A DNA stretch of 54,031 bases from a virus: positions 1 to 54,031 of the IMG/VR virus record IMGVR_UViG_3300031857_000246; one strand, given 5' to 3'. The stretch's first letter is position 1. Every line of letters begins with the position of its first letter. The translations under genes were made by a program, and so were the position numbers. The notes beneath the pieces are model-generated. The model worked only from the letters and a program-made list of their open reading frames with translations. It was not told the DNA's origin and made no database searches. This document shows, piece by piece, positions 1,351-44,211 of this stretch.

Positions 1351-3780
1351 TTATTTTTTAACAATTATTGCAGTAATACTCCAATTAGGCCTTACTTTAA
1401 CTATTTCACAACTTTTTATATTTTCTTCTAGATATTTTGTTTCAGATTCTGTTAAATAATCAGAAAAAATTCTACCTGTTTTTTGAAACTCTTCTAACAT
1501 TTGTAAGGTCGTAGTTTTTTTAGGGTCTCCCCAATTACACCAAGCTTTTTCAGGCATCAGGGCTTCAATACTAGTATGTAAATCTTCCATCACAAATATA
1601 CCTCCACTTTTAATTGATTTAAATAAAGTTGCTAAAGTTATTTGTTGGTCGTACATCCTATGACTCCCGTCATCTAGTATTACATCAATGTCAGTATTTT
1701 CTTCTGAAAACTTTATTAGTTCTTCTTTTTTAGACTGGTCCAAAAGTTTTATACTAATCCTTTCAAAGTTATTAAATTGTCTAATTGATTCTGGGTTATT
1801 ATCTAAACCCAAAATTTCAGAATTAACAAAGTAATCGGACCAAACTTTTAATGAATTCCCGTCTAAAACACCAATCTCTACAAATTTTTTAATTTGGTCT
1901 TTTATTGGTGAAAAAGTTTTTTCATAAATCTTACTAAAGTAGTCATGTTCGTGGTGTTTATCCGTGGGATAAATTTCCGCTAATTGTGTTAACATAAATT
2001 TTGATGTATCTATTTTTATATTGAATTTATTTCGATAAATAACGTCGATAGTTCTGTATGGGGTATTACCATATGAGAATGCATGGAATATAAATTTATT
2101 CTCATTGTAATCTCTAGAATTTAAATCACCATTAGGGATGATTTTAAATTTAGTTCTATCGTCTAATCTTTCGCGTACATATTTTAAACAGGTTTGGTCA
2201 TGCCAAAGTGCGTTTTTATAATGTGGATATTCTTCACAAACATCCCACCAATCACGCATAAATTTTTTAACAAAATCTGAATTTTTAACTAAGAATACTC
2301 CAGCATTAACGATTGAGGGTCCAAAATCTTCGGTCATCAATACCTCAAAATTACCATGAATAAATTCCTCAATACGTCGATAATTGTTACAGAAAATCGC
2401 ATCAATATCTAAAAATAAAACATAATCTAAATTAGGATTTTTTTCTAACATTTCTAAAACTAGTTTAGGTTTATACCAAGTTGCGGCACGTCCCTCTAGT
2501 TTAGTTCTTATTTTTTCAGTATTTTTTTCTACAAAATAATAATAATGATTTTCTTCACAATATTTCTCATTAATAGCTTCAGTATACCTACCATATAATA
2601 CGTTATCAGTATAAAATTGACAAACACCAATTTTTAAATTGGTGTCTGCACATATTGTCGTACTTTGTTTTTTAGGGGTTTTATCTAAGACTAACCATTT
2701 TTTACCTTTAAAATCAAACATCTCACTTATTTCGTTAAGGTCTATCCCATCGACTTCGGTAGTTTCTAAATTTAAATTATTAAAATTATTTTGAACCTCC
2801 CCGTCAAATTGGACAATTAACCTACCACCTTCCTGAACTGAATTAATGTACTCATCAATTAATTTGGGGTTAGTGTTTTTAAAAATGTCAACATTTGGAA
2901 TAACTAATGTGTGAATAGAGTTTTTCCCAAAAGGACAAAATCCTCTGAAATCATAACTACTCCTCACTTGTCTTCCATAGAACTCCCAATTGTATTTATC
3001 TTTATTGTAGGCGTACCACATAGCGGTATATTCCCCATCACCATACCAAGTTTTTACAGGGGTGTGATTCCAAAAATTAACATCCGAGTCAATAATTACT
3101 TTTCGCTTCATCGGAATATTTTGGTAATAGTAGTCCAATACATCCTCAACAAAATATTGTCTTTTACCATTCGTATAATGAATAGTAAAAAATTTTTCAC
3201 CTAGAATATATTGAGTACAAAGTAAATTTGTCGTTTTAACAACAAAATCTCCATTGTTAATGAATTCAAACAAAGCTTTATCTTCTATAGTTTGGTTTGT
3301 TAAATTTTCATGATTCACTAACCCACTACATACTCTTTTTGATAAGAATAGACCAGCACCACCACCTGAATTATTACGTAATACATCAGCATTACCTAAT
3401 TCTTCTAAAACATTATCTAAAACATAATGATTCACATAAGACCCATCGTCAATTCTAAAAATATAATCAAATTCCTCATTTTTCAACACCCATCCTATTG
3501 CTTCTTTTAATCTTTCAAACATAAATGATTTAGTCTGCCCTTGGATTGGTGGATTATGGTCGTAAGTCTCAGGTGAAACACAATGTAATATCTTGTCTAC
3601 TGGGTTGTATGTAAGTTTATCATTACCTCCATCAAAAAAAATAACTTTGTGACCTAATGACTCAACTTTAGGTACCCATGTCTCTAAACAAGACATTTTT
3701 CTTGTTAATGAAGCGTCAGATATTTTAATATGATTACCATCATATTTTTTACTAGTAAATGCTAAAAAAACTATTTTCAT
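1351..3780 (-). CDS. Three-domain enzyme: GT31-like + GT34-like glycosyltransferases + SAM O-methyltransferase
   Basis: This 809-aa protein appears to fuse three enzymes. Residues 1-220 resemble beta-1,3-glycosyltransferases (GT31-like) with RIDDGSY at 109-115 as the metal-binding acidic motif. Residues about 220-375 are a linker or degenerate domain. Residues about 382-580 resemble the GMA12/MNN10 galactosyltransferase fold (GT34) with the DxD motif LFLDIDAIF (DID 458-460) and the later WHDQT. Residues about 600-809 are a class I methyltransferase of the macrocin/rhamnosyl O-methyltransferase type: EIGVLDGNSL at 635-644 binds SAM, DDGSH at 703-707 is the metal/catalytic site, and GGIFVMEDLH follows. 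The parts suggest successive addition of two sugars and methyl capping. It lies between a GT60-like gene and another glycosyltransferase. Fold calls are from motifs only; middle and C-terminal domains are the surest. Confidence 0.75.
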   Translation of the reverse strand: MKIVFLAFTSKKYDGNHIKISDASLTRKMSCLETWVPKVESLGHKVIFFDGGNDKLTYNPVDKILHCVSPETYDHNPPIQGQTKSFMFERLKEAIGWVLKNEEFDYIFRIDDGSYVNHYVLDNVLEELGNADVLRNNSGGGAGLFLSKRVCSGLVNHENLTNQTIEDKALFEFINNGDFVVKTTNLLCTQYILGEKFFTIHYTNGKRQYFVEDVLDYYYQNIPMKRKVIIDSDVNFWNHTPVKTWYGDGEYTAMWYAYNKDKYNWEFYGRQVRSSYDFRGFCPFGKNSIHTLVIPNVDIFKNTNPKLIDEYINSVQEGGRLIVQFDGEVQNNFNNLNLETTEVDGIDLNEISEMFDFKGKKWLVLDKTPKKQSTTICADTNLKIGVCQFYTDNVLYGRYTEAINEKYCEENHYYYFVEKNTEKIRTKLEGRAATWYKPKLVLEMLEKNPNLDYVLFLDIDAIFCNNYRRIEEFIHGNFEVLMTEDFGPSIVNAGVFLVKNSDFVKKFMRDWWDVCEEYPHYKNALWHDQTCLKYVRERLDDRTKFKIIPNGDLNSRDYNENKFIFHAFSYGNTPYRTIDVIYRNKFNIKIDTSKFMLTQLAEIYPTDKHHEHDYFSKIYEKTFSPIKDQIKKFVEIGVLDGNSLKVWSDYFVNSEILGLDNNPESIRQFNNFERISIKLLDQSKKEELIKFSEENTDIDVILDDGSHRMYDQQITLATLFKSIKSGGIFVMEDLHTSIEALMPEKAWCNWGDPKKTTTLQMLEEFQKTGRIFSDYLTESETKYLEENIKSCEIVKVRPNWSITAIIVKK

Positions 3781-3785
3781 AAAAA

Positions 3786-5036
3786 TTATAAATTCCCAGT
3801 GATTCGGTTACACCATCCTTTAGATTTAGAGTAAGGCCAAACAACCCAATATTTTGGTTGTTCTGCAGTTTGGAAGTCTCTCCACAATTTACAATACCCG
3901 TCAGGGTCACGCATTAGGTTATTAATTTCATTAATGTCTGCGTCTTTTCTGTATAAAGTATTATCTTTTTCATCGTGGAAAGCAACAACCCAAAATTCAT
4001 AATCTTTTTCAGGTACCTGTGAAAACCCTAAATCAATACAATGTTTGAAAATTCTTGCAAAACTATCTTCCCATTCCTGTTCAGTACTAAACGTATTTGG
4101 ATTTGGTGGATATTTTTTATCTAGTGTCCATTGTTGAACAGCTCGTTTACCAAAATGTAATCCTGCATATTTTTCATAGTCTCTTAAAGTTCTTTCAGTA
4201 CCAAAACCAAAAACACCAAATTCTTCAGGATTATATTTTTCACCATCCATCGAGAATAATTTACGATTTTTTAAATGGCACTTGTTATTTCTTTCTACCC
4301 ACTTTTTATCGTCGTCCCATTGTTTTGTTCTACCTTTACGGGTATACTCATGCCAAATAACAACTTTATGAGGGTGAAATAAATCATATCCGTGTGTATA
4401 TGCTCTTGCCGCAATTGAAATTTCTTCTCCGTGAAAATAGTATTCAGGGTCGTGTTGAACTTCTTTTGAGAACTGTCCTACTGTAAAACAAAAATGTGCG
4501 GAATAAAATCTCGCAGGGATTGGCTCGGTCATTTTTTTCCATCCAGGGATTGTCTCGGGTAAAAAGAAAACCGCACCTTCAGGAATAAATCTATCAAAAG
4601 CCATTCTCCAAGGCTCTTTAATTCTTGCGGCAGGGTCATTATCAGGGTCAAAAGACGATACATAACCCGTTAATAAAGGTTTCTTATGTCCTTTCTCTTG
4701 GAGTTGTGTAATCATTCCAATTAAGGTCTCGTCCCAGTCCTTATCAAATCTCATATGAGAATCAACCTGAAGAGTATATTCTTCATTCTTATAGACTTGT
4801 TGTATAAGATTTCTAGCCCAACAAGCACCTTGTGATTCGTTATAAGGGATATCAATAATTCTAAAACGTTTATCTTTTTTATATTTTGTAAGGTCATCAA
4901 ATCCATCATTTGGGTTGAATTGTCTAGCAATACCAAATCTTAAATTTTTTGGATTTTTTGCATTTTCAATGGCTGACTCTATGGTTGGGATTAATTGTGG
5001 GTCTCTATAAGACGCAATTTGGATAAAAATTTTCAT
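3786..5036 (-). CDS. GT60-like polypeptide N-acetylglucosaminyltransferase
   Basis: The 416-aa protein opens with IFIQIASYRDPQLIPTI and FGIARQF. It has LQVDSHMRF (D92-x-H94) as the metal-binding catalytic motif and later GEEISIAARAYTHGYD and WHEYTRKGR. These are the hallmarks of the GlcNAc glycosyltransferase family (CAZy GT60). Characterised members add GlcNAc to hydroxyproline of Skp1 in Dictyostelium or to Thr of Thr-rich mucins in Trypanosoma cruzi. Its C-terminal 130 residues are an extra region of unknown role. The next genes upstream encode Thr-run and Thr/Pro-rich virion proteins, obvious candidate acceptors. Family assignment is strong; the acceptor is inference. Confidence 0.82.
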   Translation of the reverse strand: MKIFIQIASYRDPQLIPTIESAIENAKNPKNLRFGIARQFNPNDGFDDLTKYKKDKRFRIIDIPYNESQGACWARNLIQQVYKNEEYTLQVDSHMRFDKDWDETLIGMITQLQEKGHKKPLLTGYVSSFDPDNDPAARIKEPWRMAFDRFIPEGAVFFLPETIPGWKKMTEPIPARFYSAHFCFTVGQFSKEVQHDPEYYFHGEEISIAARAYTHGYDLFHPHKVVIWHEYTRKGRTKQWDDDKKWVERNNKCHLKNRKLFSMDGEKYNPEEFGVFGFGTERTLRDYEKYAGLHFGKRAVQQWTLDKKYPPNPNTFSTEQEWEDSFARIFKHCIDLGFSQVPEKDYEFWVVAFHDEKDNTLYRKDADINEINNLMRDPDGYCKLWRDFQTAEQPKYWVVWPYSKSKGWCNRITGNL

Positions 5037-5080: not shown

Positions 5081-5581
5081 TTAAAGACATTTTGGACATT
5101 CTTCTGAAATTGTTCCACTCACAATTTGATACTGATTTTCAGTCACTAAGAATGTGGAATAACCTGGTAAATTTTGATTTAAAACTGATTCTATATACAT
5201 ACAACAACCATCTATTGTAAGTATCATTGGTGGGGTTATTTCTTGGTAAGTTATAAAATTAAAGTAATACCCTCCACTACTATTATTTAAGAAATTTTCA
5301 CACAATTGTGGGTCACAGACCTCACAACTCTTTGCTACGGTAAAATAGTTGAATGTTGGTGGCTCCGTTGTTGTTGTGGTTGTTTCAGGTATAATTAATT
5401 GACAATTTTGACCTTGGTTTATAAAGTACAAATCGTAGGTTCCTTCGTAATTTTCAACGTCAAATGTGTAAGGAATTATATGCGAACCTAAATCAATAGA
5501 ACCACCACTTAAAGGATAAAATGTAATGTTTGCAACATCTCCTGAAAAAATTTGACTCTTTAATGTTATAACTGTTCCCAT
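5081..5581 (-). CDS. Small modular virion protein with poly-Thr linker
   Basis: The 166-aa protein has two parts. Residues 1-63 form a beta-rich module (SGDVANITFYPLSGGSID...IIPYTF...YEGTYDLYF) also found nearly intact at the N-terminus of the peptidase-fused protein at 6917-7786 and, more divergent, at 5595-6914. A Thr-run linker (PETTTTTTEPPT) follows, then a Cys-rich C-terminal domain (Cys pairs CEVCDPQLC, GCC and the terminal CPKC) with no recognised homolog. There is no signal peptide. An ATTTATAA-type element lies about 12 nt before the start. Position and repeated modules suggest a fibre or decoration protein; the function is unknown. Confidence 0.6.
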   Translation of the reverse strand: MGTVITLKSQIFSGDVANITFYPLSGGSIDLGSHIIPYTFDVENYEGTYDLYFINQGQNCQLIIPETTTTTTEPPTFNYFTVAKSCEVCDPQLCENFLNNSSGGYYFNFITYQEITPPMILTIDGCCMYIESVLNQNLPGYSTFLVTENQYQIVSGTISEECPKCL

Positions 5582-5594
5582 TTTACTTTATAAA

Positions 5595-6914
5595 TTATTT
5601 ACTAATTATTACACCTGTTGCAATATAATTAGACCCATCTCTTATTGTTATATTCCCACTATCCAAAACTTGAGGGGACCTACTAGCGGTTTCATCGTAT
5701 ATCAATATTCCATCCTCGTCTAATTGTGACGTGACACTTTCACCTGTGACCATATTTACTATAATTCTAACCACATCTTTATCCGTAACCATAAATGAAC
5801 CACTACGACTAACATTCGTATTAACAACTTCTAACCCATTTTTTAATATTCTATAAGTATTTAACTCGGAACCTCCAGCGTCGTCAAATGACCAATTAAA
5901 ATTATCTGTGGGTGGTAATGTTTCCATTGTTGCCGTAGGTGTAGGAGTTAATTCAGGTAATGTTGATGATGGTGTCAAAGTTGGAGTTTCTGTTAAGGTA
6001 GGCGTATTGGTAGGTGTTAAAGTTGGTGTACTAGTTGGAGTTTCAGTTAAAGTAGGTGTGTTTGTTGGCGTCTCCGTTAATGTTGGTGTGTTAGTAGGTG
6101 TACTAGTTGGGGTTTCAGTTAAAGTAGGGGTATTTGTTGGAGTATTAGTAGGTGTACTAGTTGGGGTTAGTGTGGGGGTCTCAGTTAATGTCTGAGTCAA
6201 AGTAGGTGTATTGGTTGGAGTTGAGGAATTTGTTAAAGTTAGTGTAGGTGTCGGTGGTGGGGTAAAGATGGTGTCGGCAGTAAAATTAAAACCTATCTCA
6301 ATATTCTGAGGTGAGAATTGTAAATTTGTAAATTCTGAAGTATCATTTAAATTATAATAATCGTAATCGACTACAATAAGTGTACTTCCTGATAAATCGC
6401 CAGCTTGTATTGTAACTCCCGAACTAATAATTAGACTATCACCAGATAATGTGCCTAACACATGTTGGAATGATACTGATAAATCAAAATCTAGTGGTTC
6501 AGTTGTTACTAGGGTATATTCGGCATTTACAGACCCAGGGCTAATAGTTGAGGTAAAGATTACTTCAGTATTCTGAGGTACAAAATTTAAGTCATAACTT
6601 ATATCGCAAATATTAAGTATTGTTGTGGTAGTTGTAGTAATTGGTTCAAAAGTAGTTGTGGTTGTTACAGGAATAAAAGTGGTTGTTGTAGTTGTTGATG
6701 GTAAGACATTAATAATACAGGTTTTATAAAATCTAATATAGTAAAAAGTATATTTACCATAAACCGATAAATTAGGTTCAATATCGTCACCATAAAAGGT
6801 AAAGGGGACTACTTGTTCACCCAAATCATAAACAGACCCGTTTAAAGACTCAAACGTAACTTGTGCAGTTTGTCCACTATAGTTTGTATCGAAAAATTCA
6901 ACGTATTGTGACAT
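5595..6914 (-). CDS. Virion/adhesin protein with mucin-like Thr and Thr/Pro tracts
   Basis: This 439-aa protein is a chain of modules: an N-terminal copy of the shared virion module (SGQTAQVTFESLNGSVYDLG), three poly-Thr runs separated by short Pro-containing spacers (residues about 76-97), and a beta-sandwich-like domain of about 115 residues. A Thr/Pro/Ser tract of about 105 residues made of repeated TPTxTxT units follows, then a C-terminal domain (about 340-439). The 115-residue domain has a clear paralog in the 1290-aa adhesin at 11589-15461 (shared DFDLSV, LGTxSGDS, NDTSEF). The tracts use mixed Thr codons, so they are kept by selection on protein composition rather than simple DNA slippage. 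It is probably a tail-fibre or capsid-surface component and a likely O-glycosylation target. Confidence 0.65.
   Translation of the reverse strand: MSQYVEFFDTNYSGQTAQVTFESLNGSVYDLGEQVVPFTFYGDDIEPNLSVYGKYTFYYIRFYKTCIINVLPSTTTTTTFIPVTTTTTFEPITTTTTTILNICDISYDLNFVPQNTEVIFTSTISPGSVNAEYTLVTTEPLDFDLSVSFQHVLGTLSGDSLIISSGVTIQAGDLSGSTLIVVDYDYYNLNDTSEFTNLQFSPQNIEIGFNFTADTIFTPPPTPTLTLTNSSTPTNTPTLTQTLTETPTLTPTSTPTNTPTNTPTLTETPTSTPTNTPTLTETPTNTPTLTETPTSTPTLTPTNTPTLTETPTLTPSSTLPELTPTPTATMETLPPTDNFNWSFDDAGGSELNTYRILKNGLEVVNTNVSRSGSFMVTDKDVVRIIVNMVTGESVTSQLDEDGILIYDETASRSPQVLDSGNITIRDGSNYIATGVIISK
5938..6258 (-). repeat. Thr/Pro-coding degenerate tandem repeat
   Basis: On the plus strand this reads as repeated GTTGG(A/T/G)GT blocks; on the coding strand it encodes TPTLTETPT-like units. 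Repeats are imperfect at the DNA level but regular at the protein level. It is internal to the gene at 5595-6914. Confidence 0.85.
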
Positions 6915-6916
6915 AG

Positions 6917-7786
6917 TTAAAAATTATTTTCTGTGGCCAAACAAATTTCACCATTCATTTTTATTAATCTCTCCATATCTGTAAATGAGATATAGGCATT
7001 ACCTTGTAATCCCCATCCCCTTCCCCAACTATTCTTTATTCTAAATAGTCTTTTTCTAGTATCAATTCCATTAATAACATAGGCGTGTCCACCAACAATA
7101 GGTCCTCCAATACGAATATTACCATTTCTATCAGGATAAAACATATTTCTATACCAATATGTCCCAGCAACTACGGGCCCAACATTTAATACGGTGTTAA
7201 TTAGTGTGTTAATGTCAAATGCCCAATAGTAGTTTTTAATTCGGTTTGTTTGTTGTAAATACTTGGCACCAGCCCTAACAGATGTACCATCATAATTTTC
7301 TCCAGGCCACTCGTCAATCTTTTGAGACTCCTTATAAATTAATGTTGGGTGTACAATAGGTGGAGTACCTCCGTGTTTTACGGGACCATCCTCAATCCAA
7401 TGTGCCCAAGAATATCCAACACATTGTGGTGTAATTCCTTGGTTTCCCCACCATTCATTTTGTTCCCAGTACCTAGATATGATTGGACTCTTATTAATTG
7501 TTATTTTATCTTTAATTAAGTAATTCTTATCTCTATTATCAATTGATATTCCCCTACCTAAACCAAACACTAACTCTGTAAGTCCTGATGGTGAAACAAA
7601 AACCTCACAACTTTGACTTTGAGCTGTAAAATTAAGGTTATATGTTCCTTCGTAGTAATCCGTAACATAAACATAGGGGATTATTTGTGAACCAATATCA
7701 ATACTACCACCCGTTAATGGGTAGAATGTGATATTAGCAACATCACCTGAAAAATTATCACTTTTTAAAATTACTACTGACGGCAT
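6917..7786 (-). CDS. Virion module fused to papain-like (C1) cysteine peptidase
   Basis: Residues 1-64 are the shared virion module (SGDVANITFYPLTGGSID...YEGTYNLNF). Residues about 100-289 are a papain-fold peptidase. NQGITPQCVGYSW places the oxyanion Gln at Q116 and the nucleophile at C122, in the spacing of bacterial and viral C1 homologs of the NQG-x3-x-C type. GGHAYVINGID supplies H234, and IKNSWGRGWG supplies N252. All catalytic residues are therefore present. There is no signal peptide or propeptide, and the structural module replaces the propeptide region. It may process virion proteins or attack host surface proteins from the particle. It lies 2 nt from the adhesin gene at 5595, and an AATAAATAT element (7792-7800) precedes the start. 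Confidence 0.8.
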   Translation of the reverse strand: MPSVVILKSDNFSGDVANITFYPLTGGSIDIGSQIIPYVYVTDYYEGTYNLNFTAQSQSCEVFVSPSGLTELVFGLGRGISIDNRDKNYLIKDKITINKSPIISRYWEQNEWWGNQGITPQCVGYSWAHWIEDGPVKHGGTPPIVHPTLIYKESQKIDEWPGENYDGTSVRAGAKYLQQTNRIKNYYWAFDINTLINTVLNVGPVVAGTYWYRNMFYPDRNGNIRIGGPIVGGHAYVINGIDTRKRLFRIKNSWGRGWGLQGNAYISFTDMERLIKMNGEICLATENNF

Positions 7787-7813: not shown

Positions 7814-8443
7814 TTATACCCTTTGGAAATACTTATATATTCTTTGACTTAATCTAATTCTTGGGTCATTTTCATTTCTACCTAGGGTTTTGTAGGGGAG
7901 GATAAACCCAAAACTTAAAAACACTCTTCGTGATTTAAATTCATTAGTCCAATGTTTGTAAAGAGATGCTTCAAAACAATATAAATCGGTTTCAGATATA
8001 TTAAGTACGTCTTCTCCGATGAAAATTTGATAGTCTTCGGATAAGACACTAATATTACATTTATAATTAATATATCCGTCTATTGATGCATCATAATGGG
8101 GGGTTATCTTACCACCTGAGTCCATATCAACAACTTGTAAAAATATATTGTCTGCTGGGATTTCTAAAGTTTCAGATAATCTGCCAATAATGGACTCAAT
8201 AAAATCAGGAACTTTAATTTTTAAAACCTGACTGACAGACTGAAAGTTTGTGATATAGTTTGTGTAACTATTATTTGAAATATCTATAATAGTAGATTTA
8301 CCATTTAAATCTTTTGTGATTTCAGATAAGTGGTGATTTGGATTACCTTTATCCGATTCTAATGAATTTACCCATTCTAAAATTTTTATAACTTCTTCTT
8401 TAGTTATAAAATTTCGTATCACCTTATGATTTTCAATCCCCAT
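7814..8443 (-). CDS. 2-oxoglutarate/Fe(II) dioxygenase-like protein
   Basis: The 209-aa protein has a double-stranded beta-helix signature: TPHYD (H116-x-D118) as the first two iron ligands, YKHWTNE with H164 as the distal ligand, and RRVFLSFGF (R172/R173) for 2-oxoglutarate. This matches phage and prolyl-hydroxylase-like dioxygenases. The ATG at 8441-8443 lies inside the upstream gene (25 nt overlap), so translation is probably coupled. It sits among Pro/Thr-rich virion proteins and near a GT60-like enzyme, so hydroxylation of prolines in those proteins is an attractive but unproven role. Nucleobase or small-molecule oxidation is an alternative. Confidence 0.68.
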   Translation of the reverse strand: MGIENHKVIRNFITKEEVIKILEWVNSLESDKGNPNHHLSEITKDLNGKSTIIDISNNSYTNYITNFQSVSQVLKIKVPDFIESIIGRLSETLEIPADNIFLQVVDMDSGGKITPHYDASIDGYINYKCNISVLSEDYQIFIGEDVLNISETDLYCFEASLYKHWTNEFKSRRVFLSFGFILPYKTLGRNENDPRIRLSQRIYKYFQRV

Positions 8444-9349: not shown

Positions 9350-11551
9350 TTATTCTGTTATGTTTGTTATATTTAGGACATCATTTGAGTCGTAGTATGA
9401 TAATCTTTGTCCGCCACCTGCCCTTGTAAAGATTTCGCAATTATAAAATCCGTAGACGTGAGTTGATTCTGAAAAATCAATAGATATTACACTATTACAT
9501 ATTCTATTCATTTGGAAATAATCTACAACAATGTTATTAGTAAAATTATCTCCAATAGTATTATCATAAAAATATTCTCCGATGTTATTATCATAGAAAT
9601 TATTACCAATCACATTTCCTCTATATGAACCTCCGCCAAAACCAAAACCATCTAGAACTTCGTTACTATAAAAATTAGTACCTATTGTGTTATATGAAAA
9701 TGAACCATAACAATTATTAAATTCAAAATAATCTCCGATATTGTTACTGATTGTTTGTCCACTCATATTATTCACGAAGAAACTATAACCAACATTATTA
9801 TAACCAAATTCGGCAAATGTTTGGTTTGCTTTAAAATTTGTTTTAATATGATTACTCCAAAAATCCCCCTGAATGTTATTACCCTTGAATTCATTCATAA
9901 TTTGATTGTTTTCAAAGGTAAGATTTAAATTGTCTGAATCTCCGATTGTGTTACCTTCAAACCCATTTAATATTGAGTTTTTATATATGTTTGAATATAT
10001 ATTATTATTATAAAAATCATTTAAAATATTGTTACTTTGGAAGTTATATCTAATTGTATTAGTTGCACAATCACTTCCAATACTATTCCCTACAAAATTG
10101 TATGACCCTATATTTGTACTAATACCAATCGTATTACCCCCAAAAACTTGACCGATATTATTTTCATAAAATTGGTTATATACAGTATTATTATTATAAC
10201 CATTACCAATCAAATTACGATAATAGTTTGAATAGCTTTTATTGTTGTTATAACCATTGCCGATGTCGTTATTATAAAAGTCATTATAGATTTTATTATT
10301 TGCAAATTGGTTACCTATTTCATTATTTTGAAAATCTCCATTAGTCCAAGTGTTATCTTCAAAGTTATTCCCAATATTGTTTCTATAAAAAGAACCACCA
10401 ATTAAGACATTATAGTTAAAATCACTACCAATTCTGTTATTATTAAAATTCGCAGTTATATAATTATTATTGAAGTTTTCCCCGATGATGTTTCCATCAA
10501 AATCATCATTTGTTGAGTTGTTATAAAAACTATCACCTATTTGATTATTGTCACAATCGTCATTAAATGTGTTATTATATGACCTATTTCCTATTGTGTT
10601 GTTTGTGAATGAACCACTAATAAAAACGTTGTTTGCTAAAAGAAAATCTCCTGAGCCAAGCTCAATATATATATTTGAGTGGTTACCAATATAATTGTTA
10701 ACTGCGGTTGTCTCATTAAATGTAGTATATTCGAAAACCTCATTCACCCTTATATTAGGTTGATAGTAACTCATAACACCATCATCATAGGCCGTGTAAT
10801 ATGATGAATTACTAGTCTCATTTATTGTAACACCTGAAATAGTTGCCAAAGAATTACTATTAACTAATATGACTTCAAAAATTCGAGGGTTTAGATTACC
10901 TATCGCAACAAACGAACCTGTTGAAAAATTTGAACTAAATGTTGTTCCTGTATTACCGTATAATACTCCTGTGTTCCCTGTTATACCACTTATTCCAACG
11001 AGTCCACTAAGTGGTTCAGATTCATAATACGAATATCCAATATACCTTTTAAATAATATATTTCTGTGGTCATAATCAGTTCTATTACTAAAATTATCAA
11101 TTCTTTCAGTGATTCTACCTTTCGCGGGACTATTGCTAATTTCAGTTATGTTCCAAGAAATGTCGTATGTTATTTTATCTTTAGGGTGTAGTGTTGAGTG
11201 TACTGTCGGTGAGAATCCTGTTATTGAAGTTGCTAATAATAAAATTGGTTCGGTGTCACCTGTCATATAGTTATCCGAAAATATAGGACTACGAAGATTA
11301 TCGTAGTTTGGTTGGTCATAACAAGTTTGGAAATCTGTCATTAAGTAAAATTGACCAGGTGTTAACGTCCCTCCGGTGTATAAAGAATACAACTCATTAT
11401 AAGTGATTTCAGTGTAAGTTGTTATACCAGAAAATAAACTTTCTTTTGTTATTTTATATGTTTCAGTTTGAGCTGAATTATTTAATATAAGCCAAGTATT
11501 ATCTGTTGACCCTGTAAATTCTGGTAATTGCGAAATTTTTATATTAGCCAT
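9350..11551 (-). CDS. Asn-rich beta-solenoid tail fibre/adhesin
   Basis: The 733-aa protein opens with the fibre N-terminal motif IKISQLPEFTGSTDNTWLIL, used by many phages of this type to attach fibres. It passes through a globular region and then, from about residue 282 to 700, consists of about 40 short repeats of roughly ten residues with the pattern NNxIGxxFxxN. Regularly spaced Ile/Phe and Asn ladders indicate a beta-helix or pentapeptide-like solenoid. The last 35 residues form a separate cap. Hydrophobic and Asn positions are conserved while the others vary. It is likely a rigid shaft or polysaccharide-binding fibre. A TATAAATAC/GTATTTATA element lies 14 nt upstream of the start. Confidence 0.75.
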   Translation of the reverse strand: MANIKISQLPEFTGSTDNTWLILNNSAQTETYKITKESLFSGITTYTEITYNELYSLYTGGTLTPGQFYLMTDFQTCYDQPNYDNLRSPIFSDNYMTGDTEPILLLATSITGFSPTVHSTLHPKDKITYDISWNITEISNSPAKGRITERIDNFSNRTDYDHRNILFKRYIGYSYYESEPLSGLVGISGITGNTGVLYGNTGTTFSSNFSTGSFVAIGNLNPRIFEVILVNSNSLATISGVTINETSNSSYYTAYDDGVMSYYQPNIRVNEVFEYTTFNETTAVNNYIGNHSNIYIELGSGDFLLANNVFISGSFTNNTIGNRSYNNTFNDDCDNNQIGDSFYNNSTNDDFDGNIIGENFNNNYITANFNNNRIGSDFNYNVLIGGSFYRNNIGNNFEDNTWTNGDFQNNEIGNQFANNKIYNDFYNNDIGNGYNNNKSYSNYYRNLIGNGYNNNTVYNQFYENNIGQVFGGNTIGISTNIGSYNFVGNSIGSDCATNTIRYNFQSNNILNDFYNNNIYSNIYKNSILNGFEGNTIGDSDNLNLTFENNQIMNEFKGNNIQGDFWSNHIKTNFKANQTFAEFGYNNVGYSFFVNNMSGQTISNNIGDYFEFNNCYGSFSYNTIGTNFYSNEVLDGFGFGGGSYRGNVIGNNFYDNNIGEYFYDNTIGDNFTNNIVVDYFQMNRICNSVISIDFSESTHVYGFYNCEIFTRAGGGQRLSYYDSNDVLNITNITE
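9480..10700 (-). repeat. About 40 degenerate 30-bp repeats coding a beta-solenoid
   Basis: This coding repeat has a period of about 30 bp (10 aa) with consensus protein NNxIGxxFxxN. On the plus strand it shows as recurrent ATTATT(A/C)CCAAT-like and AAAATTATT-like blocks. DNA identity between units is moderate, so the array is old or selected at protein level. Confidence 0.8.
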
Positions 11552-11588: not shown

Positions 11589-14500
11589 TTAACAAGGTCC
11601 TGTGAATGTTAATGGGAATTGACAATCAAACGCAACCCCACCACCTGCACCTGTAAATACATAAGTATATGTGCCATCCGATGAAACAATTCCTACAAAA
11701 CTAGTTGACCCATTATTATCTGTTATAGTATCATTTACTTGTATTTGTAAAGTTTCTGAAGTTTGTGTTAGTACAAGTTGATTTGTATTAATAGTTGTAC
11801 CGCCATTCCATAAGGTTGGAATCACAATATTACGTTGACAATTTGGTGTTAAAGTTAGTGTTGGTGTTGGGGATGGTGTTGGAGTTGGTGAACTTGGTGG
11901 TGCTGATGGCCAAGATTTAACGTTTGTCAGTAAAACCTGTATTTTTGCGGTCTGTGATGATGATACCGTTTCAAACCAAGAAGCCCCATTGTTTGTTGTT
12001 GCCCACCCAAAGGTGTCAGGAACCGCATTCGGGTAAGCTGGTGACAAGAAGTTTAAAACTGGGTATAAGTTAGTAGATGCTGGCGCCGCTTCAACACCGC
12101 TAGGTCTTTTTCTAACGTAGAACATAGTCATACCACCAATTACATTTGGTGAATTTCCCATATAAGTCGGAGTACCAGTGTGATATGTCGTCGTATATCC
12201 AAGTTGGACTTGACCATTTTGATTCCAAGACTCTGCAACAAATCCTACAACGTAATAACCTGTAGGTATCGTGAGAGGGGTACTAGCGTCGATTGTTCCA
12301 AAAGTCGTAGTATCATATCCAGTTGCAACTGCTCTTGTGTTTACTTGTTCGTCAGTATTACCAATTTTAACCACACCATCAACATTACCAAAAATATCAT
12401 TATATTCTTGTTGCGTAATAATTACCCAATCATTATCTGTTGCATTTTGATAACTTACTAAACTTGTTGTTAATTGGTCTTCTAACGCATCATAATTTGG
12501 GTCGACTACATACGATGGGGCTAAATTAGCTCCAGAATCTAAAAATACTGATACTGTTGTTGATTGTTCATTTGATAAAAAAGATGCACCATACACATTC
12601 CACCCTGTAAACATATAACCTGGTGATGGTACTGCCTGTATATTATATGAGACATTCTTTTCAACACTAACTTCAGTTTGTTCAGTATAAGTTACACCAT
12701 CAAATATTATTGATAAACCACCACTTAATGGTTGGATGTACAACGTTAGGGGTACTAATGGTACTACTGAAGTTGTTGGTGTCATAGTCTGTGTTGGTGT
12801 TGGTGTGGATGTAGGTGTTGAGGACTGGGTGAGTGTCGGTGTTAATGTTGGAGTAGATGTGGGTGTAGGTGTTGGTGTTGGTGTGGATGTGAGTGTAGGT
12901 GTTGGTGTTTGACTAGATGTAAGTGTGGGTGTAGGTGTTGGTAAACAAAGGTCTAATTCTGTGATTATATAACTACCATTTTCTGCAATAATAAAATCAT
13001 CGTTTTCAGTTAGAAGATATTGATTACAAGGGTTAAGATTAAAGATTGTTTCCGAAGATAGTGAGATTACTAAATCAACCCAATATGGTGACCATTTAAC
13101 ATCAACAAATTCTGACGTATCATTCAATATATTATAATCCTCTTGACGTATTACAATAGTTTCACCACTTAATAAACCTTTTGGTACCACAACACCTGAT
13201 TCAATATTTATACTATCTCCACTAATAGTCCCTAAAATATGTGTGAATGTAACCGACAAATCAAAATCTAAAGTGTTACTTAATTGTAGAGAATACACTG
13301 CTTCAATTGAACCTGGATATAGATTAGCAATTAATATTACCTCAGCATCTAATGGTATATTATAAAGTTCATAGTTTACATCGCAAGGTATAATTGTAGT
13401 TGTTGTTGTAGTTACAGGTATCGTAGTTGTTGTTGTAGTTACAGGTATCGTGGTGGTTGTGGTTGTAATTTCATAAACTATTGCTGACAAATCACACTCA
13501 GGGACAATAACCTCACAATCGGGACAATCCCAATCAAACAAATTATACCTACCCTTATTTAATTTAAAATTATGTTTAACTTCGTCAGACGTTAAAGGTT
13601 TTACATAGTAATTAAATTGTGATATACCCCCATCAAACGTACCTGCAAAGTATTTTTCTAATACTATATTTGTCGATAGTCCTGATAATGTAGTTCCACT
13701 TAAAACTGAATCAGGGAATAATTCAGGGTCTTGTTGGTATTGATAACCTAAATACGATGATGTTGTTGTCGTTGTTGAGTAATCTATTGTTGTAGTCGTG
13801 GTAACATCACCTGAAATTGGACATTCAATAAATGTTAAATTTTCTCTCAGTCCTTGTGTACCACCACCCCAAGATATGTTAAACGGAACCCCTATTTGTT
13901 TTTCCCTCTCAACGTTCAAAGCTCTAGGTATGACCTCTTCAAAATTTTCAAATGTGTGAAATTTACGTCCATTTACGTAGATTTTTAATCTACCTAATCT
14001 ATAATCTTTTTCTTTTAACCACTTATCATTTAATTCAACAACCTCTCTACCATACGGAGTTTCAATTGTTGTTACATTATATGTTGTAGTTGTTGATGTG
14101 TATGTTGTGGTATAATAGTGAGTATATGGTGGTTGAATTAATGTGACAGATTGATTGTAAGTGGATGCGGTATAAACAAAATTAGTAATGTCCCCTAATC
14201 CGCCATACCAATACAAATGACATTCGTCCATTGCACGATATCTCTCAAATACAACATCGACTTGTACCCAATGTTCAAATTTAATATAGTCAGTATTTTC
14301 ACAAAAATAATGTATTCCTTTTGGTGTACAATACTCTTGGACCGTACAACCTGATGTATAAGTTTTTGTTCCTGTACATGCATCTACGGCACATTCATCG
14401 GTTAACCTTAAAACCCTAACACATATTTTTGGATTACCCGGGTCACCACTAAATTTAACCACAAAATTGTTTGAACATGAGTCTCCACTTGGGTTAAGTT

Positions 14501-15461
14501 CAGGTGCAGTTATTTCTACCGAACTACATGGTGTAGTTTCAGTCACATATCTTAATGGTGGGTATACTGGACCACAATGTGAAAAAGTATTACCTGTATC
14601 TGAACATCCACAAGTACTTAAACAATCTAATTTTTCAGTAACACGAGTATAAGCTGAAAATCCTGATGGTGAACCTGAAGCATAATGATAAAATTTATTC
14701 TCAGCCCTTGCTCCCATATAGAAGAACATACCTGAATTTTCAGGGTAAACGTCATTTAAAGTTGTATCGCCAGTAGGTACAAAATAATCATCCCATATTC
14801 TAGGTCTTAATAATAATTCAGCACTCCATCCGTGATTTGGTCTTTCAGGTAACGTTTCATAATCGTACCCATATAACTTATAGAACCCTTGATAAAATCC
14901 TCCGTATAATTCATGGTAAACCCCTACATCAGTTTGTTTGGAAACAATCGAATAGTTGTCATTTTTTTCAATACCTGAAAATCTAATATTTGGTGGTTGG
15001 GTATATCCTGTTACTTGGAAAAATTTAGTTCTTCTGTCAAAAGATAACCTATCGAATTTTGTAAAATCGTTAATCCCTTGGGTTATGAATGCTGTCTCAC
15101 CAGTCATTTCTTTTACAAGACCATTATCAATACCTGTAAGACCTATGTCACATAAACTTGTAAACCCTGAATAACAAGACAAATCTAGATTATCTGGATT
15201 ATAGTAGTTTGACGAAACTAAAATATTAAACGGATTATATGTGTTATATTCTAAAACGTATAATTCCGAATTGTCGGGATTATTTAAATCAATCTTAATT
15301 GGTAAGACGTTCCCGTCCTCATTACCTATAATATAAGGTGAGAAAATAACTTCTTCTTTATAGTCCCTTTCATCTGACGTTAAACAGAAATCCATTATTT
15401 CAGATTTGTTTAACAAATACCATTTTGGGAAATTATATTGGTTGATATTTTGGTACGCCAT
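11589..15461 (-). CDS. 1290-residue modular adhesin with lectin-like, poly-Thr and Thr/Pro modules
   Basis: This is the largest protein in the window. An N-terminal region is followed (about 205-570) by a concanavalin/LamG-like domain: GWSAELLLRPRIWD, FYMGARAEN, RLGRLKIYVNGRKFHTFENF and a late GGISQFNYYVKPLTSDE. Poly-Thr spacers include three tandem TTTTTTIPV units. Next comes a 115-residue domain paralogous to one in the protein at 5595-6914, a Thr/Pro tract, a bacterial surface-repeat-like domain (GYMFTGWNVYGASF), and C-terminal domains ending VAFDCQFPLTFTGPC. Cys-rich loops lie around 290-390. It is probably a receptor-binding tail fibre or large baseplate adhesin. The start ATG at 15459-15461 is preceded by a GTATTTATC element. 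Confidence 0.72.
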   Translation of the reverse strand: MAYQNINQYNFPKWYLLNKSEIMDFCLTSDERDYKEEVIFSPYIIGNEDGNVLPIKIDLNNPDNSELYVLEYNTYNPFNILVSSNYYNPDNLDLSCYSGFTSLCDIGLTGIDNGLVKEMTGETAFITQGINDFTKFDRLSFDRRTKFFQVTGYTQPPNIRFSGIEKNDNYSIVSKQTDVGVYHELYGGFYQGFYKLYGYDYETLPERPNHGWSAELLLRPRIWDDYFVPTGDTTLNDVYPENSGMFFYMGARAENKFYHYASGSPSGFSAYTRVTEKLDCLSTCGCSDTGNTFSHCGPVYPPLRYVTETTPCSSVEITAPELNPSGDSCSNNFVVKFSGDPGNPKICVRVLRLTDECAVDACTGTKTYTSGCTVQEYCTPKGIHYFCENTDYIKFEHWVQVDVVFERYRAMDECHLYWYGGLGDITNFVYTASTYNQSVTLIQPPYTHYYTTTYTSTTTTYNVTTIETPYGREVVELNDKWLKEKDYRLGRLKIYVNGRKFHTFENFEEVIPRALNVEREKQIGVPFNISWGGGTQGLRENLTFIECPISGDVTTTTTIDYSTTTTTSSYLGYQYQQDPELFPDSVLSGTTLSGLSTNIVLEKYFAGTFDGGISQFNYYVKPLTSDEVKHNFKLNKGRYNLFDWDCPDCEVIVPECDLSAIVYEITTTTTTIPVTTTTTTIPVTTTTTTIIPCDVNYELYNIPLDAEVILIANLYPGSIEAVYSLQLSNTLDFDLSVTFTHILGTISGDSINIESGVVVPKGLLSGETIVIRQEDYNILNDTSEFVDVKWSPYWVDLVISLSSETIFNLNPCNQYLLTENDDFIIAENGSYIITELDLCLPTPTPTLTSSQTPTPTLTSTPTPTPTPTSTPTLTPTLTQSSTPTSTPTPTQTMTPTTSVVPLVPLTLYIQPLSGGLSIIFDGVTYTEQTEVSVEKNVSYNIQAVPSPGYMFTGWNVYGASFLSNEQSTTVSVFLDSGANLAPSYVVDPNYDALEDQLTTSLVSYQNATDNDWVIITQQEYNDIFGNVDGVVKIGNTDEQVNTRAVATGYDTTTFGTIDASTPLTIPTGYYVVGFVAESWNQNGQVQLGYTTTYHTGTPTYMGNSPNVIGGMTMFYVRKRPSGVEAAPASTNLYPVLNFLSPAYPNAVPDTFGWATTNNGASWFETVSSSQTAKIQVLLTNVKSWPSAPPSSPTPTPSPTPTLTLTPNCQRNIVIPTLWNGGTTINTNQLVLTQTSETLQIQVNDTITDNNGSTSFVGIVSSDGTYTYVFTGAGGGVAFDCQFPLTFTGPC
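12774..12945 (-). repeat. Thr/Pro-coding degenerate repeat
   Basis: Repeated GTTGGTGT/GTGGATGT blocks on the plus strand encode a TPTPTxTPTLT tract in the middle of the 1290-aa adhesin. Mixed codons argue against recent slippage. Confidence 0.8.
13391..13470 (-). repeat. 27-bp tandem repeat coding TTTTTTIPV (about 2.7 copies)
   Basis: Two nearly identical 27-bp units and a partial third unit with different Thr codons encode TTTTTTIPV. The first two copies are almost identical in DNA, suggesting recent expansion. Located in the adhesin gene. Confidence 0.85.
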
Positions 15462-38715: not shown

Positions 38716-38949
38716 ATGGAACAGACAGAAGAAACAGAAAAACAACCATTAGGTTCGTTATTTGGAACGATTAATTACTATAGTCTTGATGACTTAGATA
38801 GATTTGTTGCGTCCATGCAAAAAGACCAGGCAGTGTATTGTTTGATTCAATCAGTACATCTAGGGTTTCAAAAACAAATTTTCTCAATGCAGGAAATTGA
38901 AGTACTTTCAAAATGTTTACGTTTAATAGTTCAAAAAGATGAAAAATAG
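38716..38949 (+). CDS. Small hypothetical protein under host-type promoter
   Basis: A 77-aa protein: an acidic N-terminus (MEQTEETEKQPLG) then a helical part (SLDDLDRFVASMQKDQAVYC, FSMQEIEVLSKCLRLI). Not recognised. It is driven by a host-type promoter and overlaps by 11 nt the secreted CAP-domain gene, suggesting a two-gene early unit. Confidence 0.45.
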   Translation: MEQTEETEKQPLGSLFGTINYYSLDDLDRFVASMQKDQAVYCLIQSVHLGFQKQIFSMQEIEVLSKCLRLIVQKDEK

Positions 38950-39559
38950 TTTGTTTATTCTATTTTTGTTGTTAGGTCTAACCCTATACTCACAAAATGA
39001 TTGTTATATGTATAAATCAAATATAAGATACCTTGAGTGTAGTAATGGGTACATCACAACAAACAAATATCCCGTTACGTCTGAAAATAGGTATTTACGT
39101 AATCTAAACATTGATTATCTAAGACTAGATTCAATTAATTACAACATTGAAAAATGTTTAAATGAATTTAGACGAGAATATAATTGTCCACCTCTAACAC
39201 ATTTGAAAATTTTAGATGAATTAGCAAAATTACAATGTGATTATAACTATTATAATCATACAACAGGTCATTATAATTCCAAATATGGTGAGGATGTTGG
39301 ATTAAGAGCTCAATACCTTGGTATAACGACGTTAAAAAGAGTTGGTGAGGTCTGTATGTACCGACAACATAGTTTGCTTGAATTTCCTAGCTATAAATCA
39401 ATAAATTTAGACTACGTTAGAGATGTTATGGATTACTATTGGTTATCCCCACTTCATAGGAATTGTTTGTTGAATTTAAACTACGTTTACTATGGTTTTT
39501 ATAACCATTATAATAAGGACACTAAGGAATATTATAATGTAATGATTGTAGGGTATTAA
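38939..39559 (+). CDS. Secreted CAP/SCP-domain protein
   Basis: A 206-aa protein with a signal peptide (KNSLFILFLLLGLTLYSQ, likely cleavage near residue 18, typical of flavobacterial secreted proteins). The body has the CAP superfamily order: CLNEFRREYNCPPLTHL, HTTGHYN (H111), GEVCMYRQ (E137), and WLSPLHRNCLLN (H173) with a final YYNVMIVGY. The CAP cavity residues (two His and a Glu) are present. Phage-encoded secreted CAP proteins are unusual; acting at the host envelope, possibly in superinfection exclusion or lysis, is a guess. It is followed directly by a palindromic terminator. Confidence 0.7.
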   Translation: MKNSLFILFLLLGLTLYSQNDCYMYKSNIRYLECSNGYITTNKYPVTSENRYLRNLNIDYLRLDSINYNIEKCLNEFRREYNCPPLTHLKILDELAKLQCDYNYYNHTTGHYNSKYGEDVGLRAQYLGITTLKRVGEVCMYRQHSLLEFPSYKSINLDYVRDVMDYYWLSPLHRNCLLNLNYVYYGFYNHYNKDTKEYYNVMIVGY

Positions 39560-43473: not shown

Positions 43474-44211
43474 TTACCTATCAAGGTATGCGGAAAGTTT
43501 TTTCATTAAATCTAAAGATTTATTTGCAGAATCTTCACCACCTGTTAGAGTTCTAGATGCTTTCATTTTGTTTTCCTCATCTAAATTCTCCTCAAAATTA
43601 TTTCTATCCTCAGGATTTGAGAATAAATAAGCCCCGGGTGTTGATGGGGAGGATACTAGGTCAAAACATATTAATTCAAAATCATCTTGTACTTCATTTT
43701 GTTCTCCGACCTTTTTTAATGACCCTACACCACGAGAAGAAATACCAAGGGTTACACCTTGTCTTAAATAATTTGCGGCTAAATCTCCTTTAGTTGAACA
43801 GATACCTCTTTCATGAAAACCTGGTGAGGTTAACAATCTTAATTTACCCATTAAAATCTTACCATCCCACCACACATCTGTTATGATGTGTGCAACTCTA
43901 TCTAAATCTATTAATGATGATTCAGGGTGATTCAACTCAGAAAGTGAAACACCCTTAGCAATCATTTTTTTATAGTTCTCAGCTTCTCTTTTAAGAATTT
44001 TTTCAGGGTAAACCCTTCCGTTTCTATTTGGAGTATTATATTTCTGTAGTACTGCGTAAAACTCAAATGGTTTAGAGTAATCTAAAAAATTTTTATTTTC
44101 TTTTATTATCTCAGCATTTCCATTTTCTCTAGGGTTGATGTATCCTGCGTCGTATTCAATTAGGATACCTTTTCCAGAATCAGTAGGTCCTAATATTTTT
44201 AAATTATTCAT
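43474..44211 (-). CDS. Prohead maturation protease (T4 gp21-like)
   Basis: A 245-aa serine protease of the gp21 type: FYAVLQKYNTPNRNGRVYPE (51-70), ELNHPESSLIDLDRVAHII with catalytic His 95, TSPG (128-131), GVTLGISSRGVGS with catalytic Ser at 158/159, and DDFELICFDLVSSPSTPGAY. It should cleave head proteins after (I/L)-x-E motifs, removing the capsid-protein pro-region and destroying the scaffold. The C-terminal 40 residues are a disordered tail with possible self-cleavage sites. It has the candidate late element ATATTTATA 14 nt upstream. Confidence 0.9.
   Translation of the reverse strand: MNNLKILGPTDSGKGILIEYDAGYINPRENGNAEIIKENKNFLDYSKPFEFYAVLQKYNTPNRNGRVYPEKILKREAENYKKMIAKGVSLSELNHPESSLIDLDRVAHIITDVWWDGKILMGKLRLLTSPGFHERGICSTKGDLAANYLRQGVTLGISSRGVGSLKKVGEQNEVQDDFELICFDLVSSPSTPGAYLFSNPEDRNNFEENLDEENKMKASRTLTGGEDSANKSLDLMKKLSAYLDR

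What the first reader, a model, noticed from the sequence alone, without database searches (positions are those of the whole stretch)
6917..7786. Papain-like peptidase fused to a virion module
An intact Gln-Cys-His-Asn set (Q116, C122, H234, N252) follows a 64-residue module shared with two neighbouring virion proteins. A cysteine protease carried on a fibre or head surface would be unusual. It could cleave host surface proteins, mature the adjacent adhesins or act after entry.
Basis: partly seen in the sequence, partly recalled or inferred. Interest (0 to 1): 0.62.

Follow-up and report, generated by a model that had tools for sequence, protein, structure and literature searches.

The report
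Papain protease on phage adhesin carriers
An uncultured T4-like phage encodes a papain-type protein-cutting enzyme attached to a short anchor that its relatives use to carry many different lectins and enzymes; relatives carry the same enzyme, one copy per genome, at the tip of different adhesin-like proteins, so it is probably a protein-digesting tool on the virus surface, though this has not been shown by experiment.

Summary
The minus-strand ORF 6917-7786 (289 aa) is a 66-residue N-terminal module followed by a complete papain-fold peptidase with Q116, C122, H234 and N252. PHROG 16701 'peptidase' matches at E=2.5e-57. The predicted peptidase domain scores pLDDT about 90 or more over most of its length, and its best PDB match is xylellain. 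The phage C1A family is already known as standalone genes, often in lysis cassettes.

What appears new is the fused form. In a clade of uncultured phages the peptidase is always the last domain (59 of 59 fused proteins) of interchangeable carriers: the 66-aa module, a large 'QNINQY' protein, a 'MEFYIK' protein, or small ORFs. There is exactly one copy per genome (18 of 18). Carriers changed at least 12 times on the tree. Twenty carrier-bearing relatives lack it, so it is accessory.

The same module also carries lectin-like domains and, in relatives, an LCIB-type carbonic anhydrase. I infer a display anchor on the tail fibre or virion surface. No virion proteomics supports this, and the one standalone homologue tested by mass spectrometry (XacN1 ORF382) was not reported in virions.

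Best reading: a virion-displayed protease acting on host-surface or matrix protein. Confidence: peptidase about 0.95, virion location about 0.6, substrate about 0.4.

The parts
6917..7786 (-). 289-aa ORF: N-terminal module + C1A (papain-type) peptidase
   Evidence: identical in L004/L005; syntenic 595-aa homologue in sister phage
7589..7786 (-). residues 1-66: shared N-terminal module (beta-rich, low-confidence model)
   Evidence: pLDDT 40-50
6920..7561 (-). residues 76-289: complete papain-fold peptidase domain (same extent as standalone phage homologues)
   Evidence: PHROG 16701 E=2.5e-57; alignment with 9 isolate-phage proteins; structure
7439..7441 (-). Gln116 codon (oxyanion hole)
   Evidence: nearly invariant column
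7421..7423 (-). Cys122 codon (nucleophile)
   Evidence: nearly invariant column
7085..7087 (-). His234 codon (GGH motif)
   Evidence: nearly invariant column
7031..7033 (-). Asn252 codon (KNSWG motif)
   Evidence: nearly invariant column
5081..5581 (-). 166-aa ORF with the same N-terminal module (nt 5381-5578), TTTTTT linker and another C-terminal part
5595..6914 (-). 439-aa ORF with a divergent copy of the module (nt 6690-6914) and TTT/PT-rich stalk
11589..15461 (-). 1290-aa 'QNINQY' protein: lacks the peptidase here but its homologues carry it at their C-terminus in about 39 other loci
9350..11551 (-). 733-aa 'KISQLP...' protein with repetitive beta-helix-like NNNxIG repeats, resembling tail-fibre/adhesin genes; context only
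   Evidence: family resemblance is the author's reading; a KISQLP-type neighbour in L125 matches PHROG 'tail assembly protein' E=2.6e-4

Best explanation
The gene encodes a propeptide-less papain-type (C1A, xylellain-like) peptidase tethered by an N-terminal 66-residue module to an externally exposed phage structure, most likely a tail fibre, whisker or other adhesin assembly. Shown: the peptidase fold (predicted) and intact catalytic set, the modular fusion, one copy per genome, repeated carrier switching, and C-terminal placement. Inferred: the module and the other carriers are virion components; the peptidase sits at the outer tip of a fibre; and it digests a host-surface, S-layer-like or extracellular-matrix protein during adsorption (or on release), much as polysaccharide depolymerases do on other phages. 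Because the enzyme is accessory, and its mount changes while its single copy stays, selection seems to act on having the activity on the particle rather than on any one carrier.
For: Fold and catalysis; purifying selection, dN/dS 0.17. Tip position: the peptidase is the last domain within 6 residues of the C-terminus in 59 of 59 fused homologues, often behind Thr/Pro-rich stalks (28 of 59). Interchangeable carriers: the 66-aa module, QNINQY, MEFYIK and small ORFs; 12 carrier changes on the tree against a minimum of 4; L147 and L148 have near-identical peptidase plus stalk on different carriers. One copy in 18 of 18 long contigs; MEFYIK single copy in 16 of 18. The module also carries LamG (E=3e-13), Gly_rich_2 (E=4e-11), an LCIB-type carbonic anhydrase (E=3e-28) and a 'tail protein' PHROG domain (E=4e-12). 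Tail-fibre and tail-assembly PHROG genes lie just downstream in L131 and L125. Accessory: 0 of 20 other MEFYIK-bearing contigs have it. In several actinophages the standalone homologue sits in the lysis cassette beside lysin A and holin (PMC4982276 describes a cysteine protease-like lysis gene), consistent with envelope-directed activity.
Against: No virion proteomics, activity or host is known for this phage. The module and the MEFYIK and QNINQY domains match no characterised structural family. The XacN1 virion mass-spectrometry study lists its homologue (ORF382) as a potential lytic enzyme but reports only the chitinase, lipase and one M23 peptidase as packed (PMC5852040); that homologue lacks the anchor. 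The module's predicted structure is low confidence. There is no signal peptide, so location rests wholly on assembly. Nothing here identifies a substrate.
Confidence: 0.5

Rival explanations
1. The peptidase is a lysis or cell-wall enzyme (tail-associated or late endolysin-like) that cuts peptide bonds in the peptidoglycan or in envelope-bound protein, for entry or release, rather than a surface-protein depolymerase.
For: Actinophage homologues lie between lysin A and holin/lysin B; XacN1 authors list it as a potential lytic enzyme (PMC5852040); BFVD structural neighbours include phage Lysin A and endolysins.
Against: Sequence and motifs (Q..C, GGH, NSWG) are C1A protease, not NlpC/P60 or CHAP; no such Pfam match. 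Fused carriers are lectin/adhesin-like, not tape-measure or baseplate-hub lysozyme positions.
Confidence: 0.2
2. It is a maturation protease: it cleaves the module-bearing or mucin-like adhesins, or itself, during assembly.
For: It is fused to and lies beside the proteins it could process; the fusion would guarantee co-assembly.
Against: It is absent from 20 of 20 other MEFYIK-bearing contigs, and standalone homologues occur in actinophages and jumbo phages without these carriers; the phage has its own head maturation protease (phrog_207, E=1.3e-42).
Confidence: 0.12
3. It is an intracellular host-takeover or anti-defence protease, and the N-terminal modules are unrelated to the virion.
For: No signal peptide and no disulfide-type cysteines (2 Cys in 53 of 59 fused domains); it is accessory; some homologues are standalone.
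Against: Repeated, independent fusion as the terminal domain of lectin/stalk proteins is hard to explain for a cytosolic effector.
Confidence: 0.1
4. It is a virion-packaged effector delivered into the host at entry.
Against: It has no recognised ejection features; it lies in the fibre/adhesin island, not with internal head proteins, and on large stalked carriers (up to 1736 aa) that could hardly be injected.
Confidence: 0.05

Closest known systems
Phage xylellain-type C1A peptidases (PHROG 16701; XacN1 ORF382; SEA-PHAGES 'cysteine protease')
   Same: Same domain, 28-41% identical to the window peptidase domain, same catalytic set; horizontal acquisition by tailed phages already reported (PMC10380794)
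   Different: All 52 matching isolate phage records match only the peptidase part (query residues 62 onward) and lack the N-terminal module; annotated neighbours are often lysis genes or unrelated genes
Xylellain (PDB 3OIS), short bacterial C1A peptidase
   Same: Best structural and sequence match in the PDB
   Different: About 20% identity, TM-score about 0.6; bacterial enzyme with no virion-type module
Tail-associated depolymerases and NlpC/P60 tail peptidases of jumbo phages (PMC7824862)
   Same: Works like: an enzyme carried on a tail protein; papain-like fold in the NlpC/P60 case
   Different: Different family (no NlpC/P60 match) and, by motif, a general protease rather than a wall amidase or polysaccharide enzyme
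Polymorphic-toxin-style C-terminal domain swapping (PMC3482391, abstract only)
   Same: Constant N-terminal trafficking or anchor domain, interchangeable C-terminal effector
   Different: Here the cargo enzyme stays constant and single-copy while the carrier changes; no immunity gene was noticed; works-like comparison only

Membership tests
Papain family C1A (MEROPS/Pfam PF00112) | Gln-Cys-His-Asn active-site set in order with GGH and NSWG motifs | tested here: met
Papain family C1A (MEROPS/Pfam PF00112) | Papain two-domain fold | tested here: met
   AF2 model pLDDT about 90 or more over most of residues 81-289; 231 PDB matches E<=0.001, the listed ones all papain family
Papain family C1A (MEROPS/Pfam PF00112) | Pfam gathering score | tested here: inconclusive
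   Window protein 18.6 bits against 20.7; sister phage 21.1 and relatives up to 29.9 bits pass
Papain family C1A (MEROPS/Pfam PF00112) | Endopeptidase activity, E-64 sensitivity | not testable with these tools
   needs recombinant protein
PHROG 16701 phage peptidase | Profile match over nearly the whole family model | tested here: met
   E=2.5e-57, profile positions 5-230 of 234
Virion structural / tail adhesin protein | Presence in particles | not testable with these tools
   no proteomics; standalone homologue not reported in XacN1 virions
Virion structural / tail adhesin protein | Anchor domain homologous to a characterised structural protein | tested here: not met
   module and MEFYIK profiles have no credible PDB, Pfam or PHROG match; BppU_N hint did not hold
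NlpC/P60 or CHAP wall hydrolase | Pfam match to NlpC/P60 or CHAP | tested here: not met
   none at E<=1
Prohead maturation protease | Match to head maturation protease families and location in the head cluster | tested here: not met
   that role is filled by ORF 43474-44211, phrog_207 E=1.3e-42

The most novel reading that the evidence does not exclude
A widespread group of uncultured T4-like phages has a plug-in display system: conserved anchors (the 66-aa module, MEFYIK, QNINQY) carry exchangeable lectins and enzymes, including a papain protease kept at one copy per genome but moved from anchor to anchor, and an LCIB-type carbonic anhydrase. Such particles would carry protein-digesting and metabolic enzymes on their surface, a protein counterpart of polysaccharide depolymerases.
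Probability: 0.35. Interest if true: 0.75.

Novelty: new variant of a known kind. Interest (0 to 1): 0.55.

Why it matters
Phages are known to carry sugar-cutting enzymes on their tails to get through capsules. A general protease displayed the same way, and moved between carriers while kept at one copy, would point to protein layers (S-layers, adhesins, matrix proteins) as a barrier or target that these phages attack. It would also offer a short, compact display tag and a new set of phage proteases to test. The single-copy, carrier-switching pattern makes the question directly testable by proteomics.

Tried and rejected
BppU_N (baseplate) as the identity of the MEFYIK carrier: weak (2 of 8 members, E 0.088), gone with a wider, trimmed set; dropped. 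Structure of the MEFYIK-peptidase fusion: poor model (pLDDT 51), not used. The module in isolate phages: no match by tblastn with two module variants. Cellular origin: the first genome scan found nothing; the second found only partial, weak relatives, so host-genome ancestry is not traced here. A viral scan with the mixed alignment A1 failed for lack of conserved stretches, replaced by A3/A4. A first MAFFT alignment misplaced module-only rows and was not used for folding. Plus-strand reading of 6917-7786 is full of stops. The conserved roughly 120-aa gene just upstream of several actinophage peptidases was not pursued. Literature searches for a virion-displayed protease found none in the held library, which is incomplete.

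Full report
WHAT IS THERE. The ORF at 6917-7786 is on the minus strand and encodes 289 residues. Residues 1-66 are a small module; residues 76-289 correspond to a complete standalone phage peptidase. PHROG 16701 'peptidase' matches at E=2.5e-57. Pfam Peptidase_C1 is just below its cutoff for this protein (18.6 against 20.7 bits) but is passed by the sister phage (21.1) and by relatives up to 29.9 bits. The identical gene is found in two other assemblies of 105 and 164 kb. The record is a T4-like phage: major head protein (E=8e-66), head maturation protease, portal and terminase are in the window, and the head protein matches T4-type phages only distantly.

FOLD. The AlphaFold2 model has about pLDDT 90 or more over most of residues 81-289 and a helix/strand order typical of papain; residues 1-71 are low confidence. 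Foldseek against the PDB gives 231 hits at E<=0.001; those listed are all papain-family enzymes, with xylellain (3OIS) on top at E=1.7e-9. Among viral structures, hits include phage and giant-virus C1 peptidases and some phage lysins. No propeptide, signal peptide or disulfide pattern is seen: 53 of 59 fused domains have two cysteines.

THE PHAGE PEPTIDASE FAMILY IS KNOWN. tblastn finds it in 52 isolate-phage records (Xanthomonas XacN1, Stenotrophomonas RAS14/CM1, Streptomyces, Gordonia, Mycobacterium, Arthrobacter), always without the N-terminal module. In Gordonia and Arthrobacter phages it lies in the lysis cassette beside lysin A and holin; in others it does not. A published survey states that short, xylellain-type C1A peptidases were acquired by myoviruses and siphoviruses (PMC10380794). 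The XacN1 paper lists its copy, ORF382, among potential lytic enzymes, and names a chitinase, a lipase and an M23 peptidase, but not ORF382, as found packed in virions (PMC5852040).

THE FUSED FORM. A sister phage has the same gene order, but its protein is 595 aa: module, Thr-run linker, a 300-aa domain, then the peptidase. That middle domain is 35% identical to the N-terminus of the window's 784-aa protein beside the portal gene, so domains move about in these genomes. Scans of IMG/VR with two alignments returned about 100 loci. Classification of 83 of them: 39 with the peptidase at the C-terminus of a 'QNINQY' protein of roughly 900-1,740 aa (homologous to the window's own 1290-aa protein, which lacks it); 10 on a 'MEFYIK' protein; 6 on the 66-aa module; 6 on other N-terminal parts; 22 standalone. 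In all 59 fused proteins examined the peptidase is the last domain. On the peptidase tree the fused forms lie in one well-supported clade and carriers change 12 times (least possible 4; shuffled mean 42). L147 (QNINQY carrier) and L148 (MEFFIK carrier) share nearly the same peptidase and PT-rich stalk. Every one of 18 long contigs searched has exactly one peptidase; MEFYIK is single-copy in 16 of 18; QNINQY is present in 13 of 18. By contrast, 0 of 20 other MEFYIK-bearing contigs of 70-318 kb have any peptidase, with the same query that matched all 18 earlier contigs. All these records are fragments or of unknown completeness.

THE MODULE. It recurs in about 20 other contigs, at the very N-terminus (offset 0-5 residues in nearly all), followed by unrelated parts: a LamG lectin domain (E=3e-13), a domain matching a 'tail protein' PHROG (E=4e-12), Gly_rich_2 (E=4e-11) and an LCIB-type beta-carbonic anhydrase (E=2.6e-28). 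It has no credible match in PDB, PHROGs or isolate phages. An anchor on an exposed structure is the simplest reading, but it is an inference.

HOW IT LIKELY WORKS. Shown: intact active site under purifying selection (dN/dS 0.17), modular fusion, terminal position, single copy, carrier switching, accessory distribution. Inferred: carriers are on the virion surface; the enzyme works outside the host on a protein of the envelope or matrix. Rivals are a wall or lysis enzyme, an adhesin-maturation protease, a cytosolic effector, or an injected effector; each is weighed in its own section. The phage's separate head maturation protease and the absence from many carrier-bearing relatives argue against a housekeeping assembly role.

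NOVELTY. A C1A peptidase in phages, and enzymes on tail proteins, are both known. I found no description of this enzyme as a swappable terminal domain of phage adhesin-type proteins in the papers available, but the library lacks most subscription journals. I therefore rate it a new variant of a known kind.

Noticed in passing
window 3786-5036, 1351-3780, 7814-8443 with stalk proteins 5595-6914, 11589-15461, 45495-47849: Thr/Pro-rich mucin-like stalk proteins sit beside a PF11397 GlcNAc transferase (E=1.6e-72), a Glyco_transf_34 protein, and a 209-aa ORF with a 2-oxoglutarate-oxygenase-like HYD...H pattern (no Pfam match). This may be phage-encoded hydroxylation and glycosylation of the stalks.
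   Followed up: partly
L147:11356-12432; also L148:11267-12343, L026, L028, L029: The same N-terminal module carries an LCIB-type beta-carbonic anhydrase domain (PF18599, E=2.6e-28 for L147); Cys, His and Cys candidates for zinc ligands are conserved in all five.
   Followed up: partly
L171:614-2725: A MEFYIK carrier protein of 703 aa carries a proprotein-convertase P domain (PF01483, E=9.5e-7).
   Followed up: no
window 45495-47849: 784-aa protein next to the portal gene; its N-terminal 300 aa is the domain inserted in the sister phage's module-peptidase protein (35% identity), followed by PT-rich repeats.
   Followed up: partly
L010, L012, L013, L160: In Gordonia phages a conserved small gene of about 120 aa lies directly upstream of the peptidase gene and overlaps it by 4 bases: a possible partner or inhibitor.
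   Followed up: no
window 38939-39559: 206-aa ORF with a CAP (cysteine-rich secretory protein) domain, E=2.2e-5, unusual in a phage genome.
   Followed up: no
L076, L129, L132, L148: In several homologues a PTPSKTK-type repeat stretch is inserted inside the peptidase itself, between its N-terminal strand and the WWGNQG motif.
   Followed up: no
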